A stretch of DNA of 64,000 nt from Nannobrachium achirus (lineage: Eukaryota; Chordata; Actinopteri; Myctophiformes; Myctophidae): contig OY997641.1 in the NCBI GenBank assembly GCA_963921795.1, positions 29,388,806-29,452,805 on the forward strand. The letters are read 5' to 3'. Shown here piece by piece: positions 3,353 through 58,821 of the stretch; positions within the stretch are counted from its first letter, which is position 1, and each line of letters starts with the position of its first letter. Below the pieces are notes generated by a model. It saw only the letters and a list, made by a program, of their open reading frames with translations. It was not told where the DNA came from and made no database searches. The translations under genes and the position numbers were made by a program.

Positions 3353-12734
<9,382 letters not shown>

Positions 12735-50400: not shown

Positions 50401-50866
50401 AATCACTGATGTGCGCTTGACAGTTTGAAGTTGGATAGCTGATGTTGTGAATCCACACGCACGCACACACACGCACGCTCGCATGCACGTGCACAGTCTT
50501 TGACCTCTCTCGTGGTCAGTGGGTCTATGACCTGCGCCACATATCAACATGTCTCTCTGTATTTTGCAGACACGGACTAACAGGGCAACACACCTGCAAG
50601 TCATTTGGATAAACGGCCCTTTTCGTCAACCAGTAAACTGTCAACGAAGACCCTTCATCCACTCTTCCTCTTGTTCTCCTTCATAATATAGGCCTATATG
50701 TGGTAAATGTGGGTTACTTTTTAAATACAAATCTTACAGATTACTGTAATTTATAATTCAATAGTTTTAAAACGAACGGTGAAGTTACTTTTTGATTGCT
50801 ACCATACACAGGGACGATGATGTTTCAATATTGAGCTGGGTGCTCGTTTTTGACCCCGCCCCTTTT

Positions 50867-51286
50867 TAAGTAGGTATTTGTACTTTACTTGAGTATTTCC
50901 AATTTCCAATACTTTTACTTCTACTCCACTACATCTCAGATCCAAATATTGTACTTTTATTCCACTACATTTATTTGAAAACTTTAGTTACTAGTTACTT
51001 TTCGGATATAAGTTATAATATTTCAAAACACACATTAACCACTTTAGCCATTATACCTAGGTTGTTTGAAAATAGCCGATCTACAAGCTCCAAACGCATC
51101 ATATCATGACTGTGAGCTTGTAGATCTGCTATTTTCCGAAAAATTTTACTTTTACTTTTGGTACTTTAAGTAGGTACATTTTGATGCCAATACTTTCGTA
51201 CTTTTACTCAAGTTCATTTTGAATTGAAGTACATCTATTGCAGTATTGATACTTTTACTTAATAAGTAAAGAGTGTGAGTCCACTG
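50867..51286 (-). mobile_element. hAT MITE of the CAGTGGTGG family, reversed copy
   Basis: It is the reverse complement of the 24589 element: TACTTTACTTGAGTATTTCC, ACTTCTACTCCACTACATCT and TACTTTTACTCAAGTTCATT. Both termini are eroded. A GATCTACAAG-family hairpin sits inside at 51070-51136. Confidence 0.75.
51070..51136. repeat. Hairpin of the GATCTACAAG family within a hAT MITE
   Basis: GAAAATAGCCGATCTACAAG pairs with CTTGTAGATCTGCTATTTTC. It lies at the same relative position as the copy at 57587 in the sister MITE. Confidence 0.7.
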
Positions 51287-54902: not shown

Positions 54903-55567
54903 AACATCAGCATAAAATGTCTATATGTGCAGCGTGGTATTGGGCTGGCTACTCAGCCCAATACCTACTCAGCATACTGTATTATGCAGTATTTGACAGC
55001 CATCCAGCTATTATTCTGCACTGTCTTGGTGTTAAGCCAACTATGTTGTCGTTGCCTAAAATAATTGATATTCCCAGTGTTTCCAGCATGCATGCAAATT
55101 GGGCGTCAAATTATGTGAATATGCCTGCCGGGCAACATGTTAGCTTTGCGGGGATGACGATGAATCATGAATAATTACATGCACTCAGTGAACAATGCTT
55201 TGATCTAAAAACAAGTTTTAACAGCGATATAAAAAGAGAGAAAGAAAATAAAAGGATTGCATTGCCAGGAGAAATGCGCCTAGCCATGCCCTGGGCCAAA
55301 CTGTAAACACAGCAACAACACAGAGAGAGATGAAAGAATGACATAAACATGCGACAGAGATTTCATCCTGGCACTTTGGTTGTTTGTGACTTTTTCTCAC
55401 AGACAATTCTTCAGAAATCTAATTTATCAATATTTTGGTGAATTTTATGCTTTTACTCAAGTACATTCTGAATACCAGACTTCTACTTGTAAGGGTGCCC
55501 TCACACCAAAATACCTATGGGAGTGGAATCCGCGTTCCTCCAATGCATTTAAAATAAAAAAAAATAA

Positions 55568-56809
55568 AATAAACTGATCTACGAGTTCCAGTCTGGCTTC
55601 AGAGAGTCCCATTCCACAGATACATGCCTCATCTATTTGAATGATTACATCAAACGTGAAATTCACGATGGCAAATATTGTGGCATGGTCATGCTGGACC
55701 TCCAGAAGGCATTTGACACCGTCGATCATTCTATTCTGATCGAAAAACTCAAAGCTATTGGTCTTGATAGCACAGCAGTGAGATGGATGCACTCTTACTT
55801 GGTGGGGAGGGAACAGATGGTGGAAGTCAACGGAACCCTGTCCCCCCCCCTCCCAGTAAACTGTGGAGTACCTCAAGGGAGTATACTAGGACCACTGTTG
55901 TTCTTAATATACGTAAACGACATGTCATCTGCTTGTGACTGCAATCTGTTTCTGTTCGCGGATGACTCGGCTCTCCTAGTCTCAGGCAGAGACATTTTGC
56001 AGGTTGAAAAGGCCCTTAACTGTGAACTTAACAAGATCTGCACCTGGCTCAATGACAACAGACTCTCAATTCACCTAGGCAAAACTGAATGTATCCTCTT
56101 TGGATCTAGTCAGAAACTTAGCCTAGTTGAGAACTTCACAATTAAAGTAGGTGACACTGTGATAGAAAGAAAAAACCACATCTGCTACCTGGGTTGCATC
56201 CTGGAGGCTAACCTATCCAGTGAAAAAATGACCACCAAGGTAATCAATAAAGTCAATCAACGAATTCGCTTCTTGCAAAGAGTTGCCCCACTGATCAATA
56301 TTAAATCCCGAAAGACACTAGGAGGTGCTCTTATTGGGCCCCTCATTGATTACGGAGTCCTTGTCTGGTATCGCGACGCCCCAGCTGCCTTAAAGCTAAA
56401 GCTCCAAACAGCCCAAAACAAACTAATTAGGGTTGTGCTTGGTCTCCCTCCTCTGACCCACCTTACCGAGCATCACCACGAAAGCGTGGGGTGGCTCAAA
56501 GTAGCTGACAGAGTACAGCATCTTGCAATGGGCCTGGTGTACAAGATACACTACACCTCCAAGATTCCCATGTACCTGACAAACTACTTCTTAAAGGTCA
56601 AGGATGTTCACGATCATAACACCAGAGGCAGCTCCACTAATCATCATCAGCGTAGATTTAACACTAAACAAGGCGCTAACTCGTTCTCCTGCTATACCAT
56701 CAACATGTGGAACGCCCTTCCACAAGCCCTAAAGGAGAGCAAATCCCTAGCCTCCTTCAAAATTGGTATGAAAAGTCACCTTCAGACAGCAGCTACCCGT
56801 GACTTGTAA
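55568..56809 (+). CDS. LINE reverse transcriptase, 5'-truncated, open frame
   Basis: A 413-codon open frame encodes the reverse transcriptase core of a jockey/I/L2-like non-LTR retrotransposon. It opens with QSGFRESHSTDTCLIYLNDY, then motif A MLDLQKAFDTVDHSILI, motif B GVPQGSILGPLLFLIYVND and motif C FADDSALLVSG with catalytic FADD at 55954-55965. These are followed by WLNDNRLSIHLGKTE and HICYLGCILEANLS. The C-terminal region has AQNKLIRVVLGL and MWNALPQALKES. The endonuclease domain and 5' part are missing, so it cannot be autonomous. The frame is nonetheless intact, which suggests recent insertion. It is not a host gene. The likely element span is 55549-57085. Confidence 0.9.
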   Translation, partial: NKLIYEFQSGFRESHSTDTCLIYLNDYIKREIHDGKYCGMVMLDLQKAFDTVDHSILIEKLKAIGLDSTAVRWMHSYLVGREQMVEVNGTLSPPLPVNCGVPQGSILGPLLFLIYVNDMSSACDCNLFLFADDSALLVSGRDILQVEKALNCELNKICTWLNDNRLSIHLGKTECILFGSSQKLSLVENFTIKVGDTVIERKNHICYLGCILEANLSSEKMTTKVINKVNQRIRFLQRVAPLINIKSRKTLGGALIGPLIDYGVLVWYRDAPAALKLKLQTAQNKLIRVVLGLPPLTHLTEHHHESVGWLKVADRVQHLAMGLVYKIHYTSKIPMYLTNYFLKVKDVHDHNTRGSSTNHHQRRFNTKQGANSFSCYTINMWNALPQALKESKSLASFKIGMKSHLQTAATRDL

Positions 56810-57085
56810 ATAGACTAAGCCCCCATGCTCCCCCCCCCCTTTTTCTCTGTATTCTGCCTTTTGTTTTTGATGTTATGCTTTTGAAACTGATATTATCCTA
56901 GATAAAGTACTATGTTCTATCCGTCTGTCTTTCAATGTTATATGAGATACTTAAAGTGTGGTTCCTGTGGAAATAAGCCTCGGCTTTCTAGGATCTCCTT
57001 TTAGTTGACCTTGTACCAGTGATTTGTACTGTCATGAAACTGTACTTTTTTCTATTGCAAACTTCTAATAAATTCTTCAATCAAT
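56810..57085 (+). mobile_element. 3'UTR and (CAAT)-type tail of the LINE
   Basis: It contains TTATATGAGATACTT, CCTGTGGAAATAAGCC, GTACCAGTGATTTGTACTG and CTTCTAATAAATTC before TTCAATCAATTTCAATGAG. It matches 49460-49729 through the whole tail. Confidence 0.85.
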
Positions 57086-57210
57086 TTCAATGAGAGTGAA
57101 GCGGTTTCATGCCAGCAGAGGATTTCTGCAAAAAACGCTCCCTTATCATTGAAATGCATTGGAGGAACGCGGATTCCACTCTCATAGGTATTTTGGTCTG
57201 AGGGCACCCT

Positions 57211-57373
57211 AAGGGTGCCCTCACACCAAAATACCTATAGTCGAATCCGCCAATGCATTTCAATGAGAATGGAGCGTTTTTTTGCAGAAATCCTCTACTG
57301 GCAAAAAACGCTCCATTCTCATTGAAATGCATTGGCGGATTCCACTATAGGTATTTTGGTGTGAGGGCACCTT
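57211..57373. mobile_element. Intact MITE, AAGGGTGCCCTCACACC ends
   Basis: The ends AAGGGTGCCCTCACACCAAA and TTTGGTGTGAGGGCACCTT are inverted. The whole 163 bp folds as one near-perfect hairpin through CCAATGCATTTCAATGAGAA and its complement. It directly follows the split copy, head to tail. Confidence 0.88.
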
Positions 57374-57826
57374 AACAGAGTATTTCCGCATTGTAGTATT
57401 GATACTTTTAGTAACAAAGTAACCAGTGGTGGAAAAAGTACTAAATTTCTTTACTTGAGTAAAAGTATCAATACTGCAATGTAGAAGTAGTCCGTTACAA
57501 GTAAAAGTCTGTAATTCAAAATGTACGAAAGTGTTTGCATAAAAATGTACTTAAAGTACCAAAAGTAAAAGTAAATATGTTTGAAAATAGCTGATCTACA
57601 AGCTCACAACGCGTCGCAGAATAAAATAGGGCATGGTGGTTTATGTTTATGGTGTATGTTTTATAATATCATAATTTATATCTACAAAGTAGCTAGTAAC
57701 TAAAGTTTTCAAATAAATGTTGTGGAGTAAAAGCACAATATTTGGATCTGAGATTTAGTGGAGTGGAAGTAAAAGTATTGGAAATTGGAAATACTCAAGT
57801 AAAGTACAAATACCTCAAAAGTGTAC

Positions 57827-58405
57827 TTAAAGGTGGAGTGACATGGCCAAAACAGCTAATTAAGGCTATCAAATTAGACAATTTTTTAATGATGTCATGT
57901 ACCCCCATGTTAAATGACCCAATCAAATTAATTTATTGTAGTTACTGTACTGAAAGTAGTACTTTCTGTACAGTAACTGAAATAAATTAATTTGATTGGG
58001 CTAATATGGGGGGAGGGGTGGAGTCGATTATCCATATCATTATCTTTTGAAACTGCCCCAAAAAAAGCTGTCCGAGGTGTGTTTCCGACTTTCTAAACCA
58101 ACTTTAAAACTATCAGTTCTAGGGGTAAAAATTATATAGCATTCGCTATAAAATCAATGGTTAGACCGATGAAAAAGTACATGTCTTCTTCAAAAAAGGT
58201 GTCAAAAAAGGTGTACGAGGGTCAACACGCTTCTCCCCGTCTATGAGACGGTTTTGTCGGCCATACCCTGCTGTCTACTGCCCTAAACCTTACTGGAGCA
58301 CCCGGGACACCGGAGCAAGCGTAACGAGGGTCCAGCGATCTCCTCCTCCGACCTCCGCAGAGGAGGTCCGTCACTCCGTGGCTCATACACTCTGTGTGTG
58401 TGTAG

Positions 58406-58475
<70 letters not shown>

Positions 58476-58752
58476 TTCGCGCGCGCGCGTGTGTGTGTAC
58501 ACACACAATAGCTCTCGCAAATAGCCATGCGGTGCAGGGCTAGCCGGGCTAAACGCTAACAACAAGGCATCACGTTGTGCGTGGCACCGCACGACGGACG
58601 AAGTATACATTACGCGGCACCGCGCGACGGACGAAGTATACATTCACTACTAACTGATACGGCCCCGCCTCCTTTTCAGACTGTTTGAAGAAACACCACG
58701 TGACTTACTGTATCATAATGTTAAATTTCGGCCGGTGTCGCCACTCCTTTAA
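57827..58752. mobile_element. TTAA-flanked 0.9 kb element inside the hAT MITE
   Basis: TTAA stands at 57827-57830 and 58749-58752. The ends TTAAAGGTGGAGTGACATGG and GTGTCGCCACTCCTTTAA are imperfect inverted repeats. The interior holds a hairpin of about 100 bp (57901-58013), a GT tract at 58395-58497 and a 33-bp tandem pair at 58581-58650. No transposase was seen. Confidence 0.75.
58395..58497 (+). repeat. (GT)n microsatellite ending in CGCGCG
   Basis: GT repeat passes into TTTCGCGCGCGCG and back to GT. Confidence 0.95.
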
Positions 58753-58821
58753 GTAAATGTACTTAGTTACTGTACACCACAGAAAGTAACAAATGTGAGT
58801 ACTGTTTTACTCCACCACTAG

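What the first reader, a model, noticed from the sequence alone, without database searches (positions are those of the whole stretch)
55400..58821. Multi-level nest of transposons in dlx4 intron 2
The order can be read from target duplications: a reversed hAT MITE was hit by AAGGGTGCCC MITEs (two, head to tail). One of these was split by a truncated LINE. The outer MITE was also hit by a sister MITE (AAAGTAAC duplication), and that sister was hit by a TTAA element that later gained microsatellites. It gives a relative dating series for five element families at one site.
Basis: seen in the sequence. Interest (0 to 1): 0.7.

Follow-up and report, generated by a model that had tools for sequence, protein, structure and literature searches.

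The report
Mini-transposon docking site inside another transposon
The pile-up of jumping genes in this fish dlx4 intron is real, but its core is not a one-off: a young family of tiny palindromic transposons has landed again and again at the same spot inside copies of an older, abundant transposon.

Summary
The nest is real: excising each element at its target duplication restores continuous alignment at four junctions. Details of the reading fail. There are four families, not five. The outer hAT MITE lacks its far end. Nesting gives only a partial order (30 compatible orders). The microsatellite belongs to the TTAA element family and has only expanded here.

The main result came from the window's own genome. 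The AAGGGTGCCC MITEs (3-bp TWA duplications, Harbinger-like) lie at one internal site of a hAT MITE, AAATACTCTG-TTA-CAAGTAAAAGTC, in 39 of 40 copies of one subfamily and 21 of 24 of the other. Genome-wide, 1250 of 2300 exact MITE ends carry the exact 5-bp hAT flank; about 25 are expected. MITE copies differ by 1.3-1.7%, their hAT flanks by 18-19%, in both orientations, at unrelated loci. So these are many independent, targeted insertions into old hAT copies, not one composite that spread. Target choice beyond 3 bp is known for PIF/Harbinger; a preferred site inside another MITE looks like a new variant. Transposase not identified.

The parts
55432..55492 (-). Outer hAT MITE, inner segment, ending in the TAA target; left limit uncertain, no far terminus found
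   Evidence: Alignment to sister and 24589 copy; the 39 other scored genome matches begin between 55419 and 55450, at 81-98%; no 8-bp duplication or second end
55490..55492 (.). TAA target duplication, copy 1
   Evidence: TWA duplications in the family
55493..55550 (+). MITE 1 (Harbinger-like palindromic MITE), left part
   Evidence: junction test; family copies L056-L080
55551..55567 (.). 17-nt A-rich filler at the 5' junction of the LINE; not part of the LINE family
   Evidence: 39 of 39 other scored LINE copies match only from query base 18 or 19, i.e. window 55568-55569
55568..57085 (+). 5'-truncated non-LTR retrotransposon (LINE); open frame 55568-56809 of 413 aa with reverse transcriptase domain
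   Evidence: Pfam RVT_1 E 2.4e-28; family copies about 100% identical; frame
57086..57209 (+). MITE 1, right part (first 2 bases ambiguous with the LINE junction)
   Evidence: 57088-57209 matches 10 places at 100%, one being the window
57210..57212 (.). TAA between the two MITEs
57213..57372 (+). MITE 2, near-perfect palindrome (single-strand DNA fold -85.5 kcal/mol, z -24)
   Evidence: family copies
57373..57375 (.). TAA target duplication, last copy
57376..57423 (-). Outer hAT MITE, middle segment, ending in AAAGTAAC
57416..57423 (.). AAAGTAAC duplication, copy 1
57424..57830 (+). Sister hAT MITE, left part, ending in TTAA
57831..58748 (+). TTAA element (Kolobok/T2-MITE-like), 918 bp, with internal hairpin and microsatellite shared by its family
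   Evidence: 39 other copies scored at 94-97%, 19 of them fetched; AGGRR/TTAA definition in PMC6004289
58408..58473 (.). Locally expanded (TG) run: 66 bp, against 10-32 bp for the longest uninterrupted run in the 18 other fetched copies that have one
58753..58782 (+). Sister hAT MITE, right end
58783..58790 (.). AAAGTAAC duplication, copy 2
58791..58820 (-). Outer hAT MITE, terminal segment with the CAGTGGTGG end (last base changed)

Best explanation
A related group of short, near-perfectly palindromic, Harbinger-like MITEs (3-bp TWA duplications) inserts with strong preference at one site inside a much older and abundant hAT MITE. The preferred target is about 20 bp, AAATACTCTG-TTA-CAAGTAAAAGTC. 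Each event duplicates the TTA/TAA and can go in either way round. Because TWA and half of the site survive at each edge, further MITEs can land beside the first, giving head-to-tail pairs such as the one in the dlx4 intron. Here an old outer hAT copy received MITE 1 and MITE 2 at that site and, elsewhere, a sister hAT MITE; the sister later took a Kolobok-like TTAA element, and MITE 1 was recently split by a 5'-truncated LINE. Shown: the nest, the recurrence of the site, and the independence of the insertions. Inferred: that Harbinger-type transposition proteins supply the target choice, and that tandem pairs arise by successive insertion.
For: Site recurrence: 39 of 40 scored copies of the MITE 2 family (the window's own copy is one of the 40) and 21 of 24 fetched copies of the MITE 1 family (25 of 40 scored were fetched; the window's own is left out) have at least one hAT flank at this site, by alignment score 35 or more (random window segments: 99th percentile 22, maximum 51, the window itself holding hAT copies); both flanks in 30 and 15. 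Genome-wide exact counts, free of the best-40 selection: 2300 TWA + MITE ends, of which 1250 carry the exact flank MYYTG, against 1.1% of TWA in the window, about 25 expected; 4358 exact 21-bp empty sites remain. Independence: median MITE pairwise distance 1.3% and 1.7%, hAT flanks 18.3% and 19.0%, flank greater in 435 of 435 and 105 of 105 pairs; orientation 12 F/18 R and 7 F/8 R; orientation and subfamily scattered on the hAT tree as in shuffles; sequence 450-700 bp away mostly unrelated (60 of 8128 segment pairs with any match, none over 90% across 150 bp). Duplications: TAA/TAA 20 and TTA/TTA 10 of 40. Target choice: filled copies differ by a mean 9.5% within 2-9 bp of the site, empty copies by 26%. 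Literature: characterised PIF/Harbinger elements prefer 9-15 bp targets around a 3-bp duplication (PMC2836001, passages). PF13359 Harbinger transposase stretches abound in this genome: 150 scored matches, over the cut-off.
Against: No transposase was tied to these MITE ends: L101-L103 (three copies of one element, 1.5 kb of flank each) do not show the terminal repeat next to TWA, and none of 9 transposase hits on contig C1 lies within 40 kb of a listed MITE end. The genome-wide exact-flank share is 54%, not 94%; mutation of old flanks and tandem partners explain part (86 of 130 ends are exact in the fetched copies), but perhaps a quarter of the ends lie elsewhere. Exceptions among the 64: L032 (no hAT flank), L059 and L080 (by eye another part of a hAT copy), L073 (not at the site; an intact hAT site lies just beyond its tandem partner). 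Part of the enrichment may be plain motif plus host abundance: GTTACAAG occurs 3 times in the window, 1 in a hAT. The planned reversed-flank control pattern did not complete. Filled and empty hAT copies are not fully mixed on the tree (16 changes against 21.3 in shuffles, 2 of 300 as low), and the 26 empty copies are a small, older set, 13 of them selected by similarity.
Confidence: 0.85

Rival explanations
1. Composite element: a palindromic MITE inserted once into a hAT MITE, and the hAT transposase then spread hAT plus MITE as one unit.
For: Same internal place in nearly all copies read; filled copies cluster somewhat on the hAT tree (16 changes, shuffled mean 21.3).
Against: MITEs differ by 1.3-1.7% while the hAT flanks differ by 18-19%, the flank being more diverged in 540 of 540 pairs, with correlation -0.19 and -0.14; both orientations occur.
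Confidence: 0.04
2. Ectopic gene conversion copied the MITE from one hAT copy to others.
For: Flanks next to the site are more alike in filled copies (0.095 at 2-9 bp, 0.157 at 10-19 bp).
Against: Tracts would have to be only some 10 bp on each side while carrying 160-180 bp of new sequence; both orientations and two or more subfamilies at the same place, scattered over the tree; motif conservation is also what target choice predicts.
Confidence: 0.06
3. No special targeting: TWA-targeting MITEs land at random and hit hAT because hAT is very abundant.
For: hAT copies are dense (six model hits from five copies in 64 kb), and 10 of 19 other fetched TTAA-element copies also have a hAT-like flank.
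Against: hAT holds about 100 of 2400 TTA/TAA positions in the window, yet 60 of 64 copies use one site in it; 1250 of 2300 exact ends against about 25 expected.
Confidence: 0.03
4. One reading: a one-off nest giving a dating series for five families at one site.
For: Junctions hold.
Against: Partial order only, four families, microsatellite not later, and the central insertion step is a genome-wide recurrence.
Confidence: 0.02

Closest known systems
PIF/Harbinger MITEs (Tourist, mPing; zebrafish Harbinger3N_DR)
   Same: 3-bp TWA duplications, terminal inverted repeats, extended target preference of 9-15 bp (PMC2836001, passages read); Harbinger transposase stretches present in the genome
   Different: The target consensus here is about 20 bp and lies inside one hAT MITE family, which receives most of the insertions examined; autonomous partner not identified. 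A 17-bp target for zebrafish Harbinger3 is recalled, not read here
hAT MITEs
   Same: Host element: CAGTGGTGG ends; 8-bp duplications AAAGTAAC (sister) and GTGGCAGG (24589 copy)
   Different: Acts here as the landing site; the outer copy in the window lacks one end
Kolobok / T2-MITE (Xenopus)
   Same: TTAA duplication and terminal AGGRR motif (definition in PMC6004289, passages); internal simple repeats carried by the family
   Different: Window copy's left end reads AGGTG, not AGGRR; no transposase tested
Elements that insert into a fixed site of another repeat (Tx1L in Tx1D, R2 and Pokey in rDNA, Dada in small-RNA genes; recalled, not read)
   Same: Repeated, sequence-specific insertion into a multicopy target
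   Different: Here both partners are small non-autonomous DNA elements, and the specificity is a strong preference, not absolute
Transposon interruption/defragmentation dating (PMC2517846, PMC2672092, PMC3014933; search listing only)
   Same: Uses nesting to order element activity
   Different: Needs many nests; one nest gives only a partial order

Membership tests
PIF/Harbinger (Tourist-like MITE) | 3-bp target duplication, TWA | tested here: met
   TAA/TAA 20 and TTA/TTA 10 of 40; the other 10 differ on one or both sides
PIF/Harbinger (Tourist-like MITE) | Terminal inverted repeats | tested here: met
   MITE 2 arms 74 nt, 96% complementary; fold z -24
PIF/Harbinger (Tourist-like MITE) | Insertion preference extending beyond the 3-bp duplication | tested here: met
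   Site profile of 45 copies, filled against empty; literature 9-15 bp
PIF/Harbinger (Tourist-like MITE) | Autonomous partner with DDE transposase (PF13359) sharing the terminal repeats | tested here: inconclusive
   Transposase stretches abundant but no shared ends seen in 3 loci or near 9 C1 hits
PIF/Harbinger (Tourist-like MITE) | Myb-like ORF1 protein in the autonomous partner | not tested
   No autonomous partner identified
hAT MITE (sister and 24589 copies) | 8-bp target duplication | tested here: met
   AAAGTAAC; GTGGCAGG
hAT MITE (outer copy) | 8-bp target duplication and two ends | tested here: not met
   One end only; best candidate duplication 6 of 8. Described only as a truncated relative of the sister, by sequence similarity
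hAT MITE | hAT transposase partner | not tested
   -
Kolobok / T2-MITE (TTAA element) | TTAA duplication | tested here: met
   Window copy; TTAA on both sides in 14 of 19 other fetched copies, TTGA on one side in 4, L082 lacks the 3' end
Kolobok / T2-MITE (TTAA element) | Terminal AGGRR | tested here: inconclusive
   Right end AGGAG in the window and 18 of 19 others; left end AGGTG in the window and 10 of 19, AGGGG in 8, AGTTG in 1
piggyBac (considered for the TTAA element) | Ends beginning CCC (recalled) | tested here: not met
   Ends begin AGG
non-LTR retrotransposon (LINE) | Reverse transcriptase domain | tested here: met
   PF00078, E 2.4e-28
non-LTR retrotransposon (LINE) | Clade (L2, Rex1 or other) | not tested
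   No LINE reference library on hand

The most novel reading that the evidence does not exclude
A Harbinger lineage has become a dedicated parasite of a hAT MITE: its target recognition is tuned to one roughly 20-bp sequence that in this genome is found mostly in that hAT family, so thousands of dispersed hAT copies serve as a harmless landing pad. Several related palindromic MITE families share the site and stack up in tandem there.
Probability: 0.4. Interest if true: 0.65.

Novelty: new variant of a known kind. Interest (0 to 1): 0.45.

Why it matters
Site-choosing DNA transposons are uncommon (recalled), and one that uses another transposon as its landing site gives a natural record of many insertion events with known empty sites. 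It makes target recognition by PIF/Harbinger proteins testable, suggests how a cut-and-paste element can multiply without hitting genes, and warns that a nested pair of elements need not be a purely local history. For annotation, hAT copies holding these MITEs may be broken up or misnamed by repeat maskers.

Tried and rejected
Composite co-amplification was the first alternative once all eight fetched MITE 2 copies (the window's own among them) showed the same hAT flank; it fell to the divergence and orientation tests. Gene conversion was considered and judged unlikely. The TTAA element was first taken for piggyBac-like, then moved to Kolobok-like. The first null for the junction test was flawed because random arms included other copies of the same repeats (for instance 13 of 2000 reached the score for the outer/MITE junction against the sister); it was redone with those regions masked. 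The copy at 50867 could not test the TTAA junction. A TA duplication (mariner-like) for the MITEs was weighed by eye: it needs an indel in two ends, TAA needs one substitution. Two literature ideas led nowhere: a search by the hAT end sequence (the 8 of 451 listed looked like chance hits) and by dlx3b/dlx4b and transposable elements. Searches for a described site-specific Harbinger MITE, or MITEs in a fixed site of another MITE, showed none among the papers listed; two searches returned 0 papers, and the others list 12 each of 26, 64 and 25. This covers only the open-licence library, and I did not open most of those papers. PMC2290759 and 10.1105/tpc.010235 are not held. The autonomous partner was not found.
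Full report
THE OBSERVATION. The 3.4-kb stretch was dissected by target duplications. TAA lies at 55490, 57210 and 57373; AAAGTAAC at 57416 and 58783; TTAA at 57827 and 58749. Removing each insert and rejoining gives continuous alignments: the outer hAT MITE reads through the MITE pair (...CTCTGTTACAAGTAGAAG..., no gap against the sister copy) and through the sister, the sister reads through the TTAA element, and MITE 1 reads through the LINE. Controls replaced one arm by random window sequence with the repeat regions masked: 0 of 3000 reached the joined score for the outer junctions against the sister and the 24589 copy, and 0 of 3000 for the LINE junction; 0 of 3000 right arms for the TTAA junction against the complete 24589 copy. 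Less favourable: against the 50867 copy 1 to 6 of 3000 for the outer junctions and no information for the TTAA junction, because that copy ends before it; 35 of 3000 right arms for the TTAA junction when the 24589 copy was cut 8 bp short; 14 and 19 gap bases near the outer/MITE junction against the 24589 and 50867 copies.

WHERE THE READING FAILS. The outer hAT MITE has one end only; neither a second end nor an 8-bp duplication was found, and the 39 other scored genome matches to its left part begin between window 55419 and 55450. There are four families. Nesting allows 30 orders of the five later insertions. The microsatellite belongs to the TTAA family: 18 of 19 other fetched copies have TG runs in the same part of the element, and only the 66-bp run is local. 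The region is dlx4 intron 2 as far as can be seen: homeodomain exon 3 at 54464-54411 minus with its splice acceptor, exon 2 not found in the window; the name dlx4 rests on a recalled probe and on the neighbouring dlx3 exons.

AGES FROM GENOME COPIES. The window lies in a 1.66-Gb assembly. The LINE matches 39 other scored copies (of 3909 candidates) from 55568-55569 to 57084-57085 at about 100% (bits 2720-2734 against about 2739 for a perfect match, i.e. roughly 1-4 differences in 1518, an estimate from bits). The 17 A-rich bases before it are not LINE. Differences of the window copy from its family majority: MITE 2 4 of 160, MITE 1 2 of 179, TTAA element 6 of 530. With at most 4 of 1518 for the LINE, it is youngest (Fisher p 0.004 against the MITEs, 0.02 against the TTAA element); MITE 1, MITE 2 and the TTAA element cannot be separated. 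hAT copies differ from one another by about 18-31% and are by far the oldest.

THE UNEXPECTED RESULT. All eight first MITE 2 loci (the window's own is one) had the same hAT flank. All 40 scored copies of the family were then read: 39 have at least one hAT flank at the site and 30 have both; the exception is L032. Of the 40 scored MITE 1-family copies 25 were fetched; of these, less the window's own, 21 of 24 have at least one hAT flank and 15 both; exceptions L059, L073 and L080. One of the copies counted (L051) sits a few bases off, at the next TAA. Both sets are the best-scoring copies among 1197 and 1180 candidates, so an unselected count was made: 2300 exact TWA + MITE ends in the genome, 1250 of them with the exact hAT flank MYYTG. 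In the window 53 of 4800 TWA have that flank, so about 25 would be expected. In the fetched copies 86 of 130 ends are exact, so 54% genome-wide suggests that roughly three quarters of ends lie at the site (inference). 4358 exact 21-bp empty sites exist, some of them in a local tandem array.

WHY IT IS TARGETED INSERTION. If a hAT element carrying the MITE had spread, MITE and hAT would be about equally diverged. MITE pairs differ by a median 1.3% (435 pairs) and 1.7% (105 pairs), hAT flanks by 18.3% and 19.0%; the flank is the more diverged in 540 of 540 pairs, with no positive correlation, and both orientations occur (18 R/12 F, 8 R/7 F). The copies were chosen for similarity of the MITE, which lowers the MITE figure but would lower the flanks too under the composite model. 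On a tree of 45 filled and 26 empty hAT sites, orientation and subfamily are scattered as in shuffled labels (16 against 14.8; 13 against 12.8), while filled against empty is mildly clustered (16 against 21.3, 2 of 300 shuffles as low). The surroundings 450-700 bp away are mostly unrelated (60 of 8128 segment pairs with any match, none over 90% across 150 bp), which speaks against recent segmental duplication. Filled sites keep the motif better than empty ones, as expected if the motif is read. By eye, 11 of the 63 other fetched copies (L027, L031, L036, L039, L050, L055, L068, L069, L070, L073, L076) have a further related palindromic MITE, whole or partial, beside them, so the head-to-tail pair in the window is not unusual.

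WHAT IT IS CLOSEST TO. TWA duplications and a target preference beyond the duplication match PIF/Harbinger: a published account gives 9-15 bp for characterised members (PMC2836001, passages). Teleost Harbinger elements are described with 25-50-bp terminal repeats and 3-bp duplications (PMC9179366, passages). The genome holds at least 150 scored PF13359 transposase stretches, many in long open frames, but no element joining such a gene to these ends was found in the little that could be looked at. Membership is therefore likely, not proven. The TTAA element fits Kolobok/T2-MITE (TTAA, AGGRR; PMC6004289, passages) better than piggyBac, with the reservation that its left end reads AGGTG in the window and in 10 of 19 other copies.

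VERDICT. The nest as reported is an ordinary, largely correctly read nest with an overstated dating claim. What it led to is worth more: a MITE group with a strongly preferred landing site inside another MITE family. Extended target preference is known in this superfamily, so this is a new variant of a known kind; whether the specificity is for the hAT element or only for a motif it happens to carry is open (GTTACAAG: 3 in the window, 1 in a hAT).

Noticed in passing
window 3586-3656, 51068-51136, 57584-57618; partial at 12199, 15063, 1719, 42870: A small palindromic repeat (AAAATAGCTGATCTACAAG...) occurs alone and also inside two of the hAT copies at corresponding places, in the sister with only one arm left; probably another palindromic element or an exchangeable hAT core.
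   Followed up: partly
window 57902-58012: An 83% self-complementary hairpin inside the TTAA element; a self-complementary match in the same part was reported for 39 of 39 other scored copies, so it belongs to the element.
   Followed up: partly
L082-L100: 10 of 19 other fetched copies of the TTAA element have a hAT-like flank: hAT MITEs are frequent landing sites for this family too, perhaps only because they are abundant and hold TTAA.
   Followed up: partly
L027, L036, L039, L050, L055: Two further related palindromic MITE types (TAAGGCTGAAGCCACACC..., TTAGGGTACAGTCACACC...) sit beside MITE 2 copies at the hAT site; in L050 one of them appears to be itself split by a MITE 1-type copy (by eye).
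   Followed up: partly
window 55551-55567: 17 A-rich bases between MITE 1 and the truncated LINE belong to neither; untemplated filler at the 5' junction is one possibility.
   Followed up: no
G000:C1:5892012-5892432: Eight exact empty hAT target sites spaced 50 or 100 bp apart: the hAT target region seems to have become a 50-bp tandem repeat there.
   Followed up: no
window 50860-50870: The hAT copy at 50867 breaks off at ...ACTTAA followed by AAAGGGGCGGGGTC; no remainder of the hAT was found in the 2.4 kb searched beyond it.
   Followed up: partly
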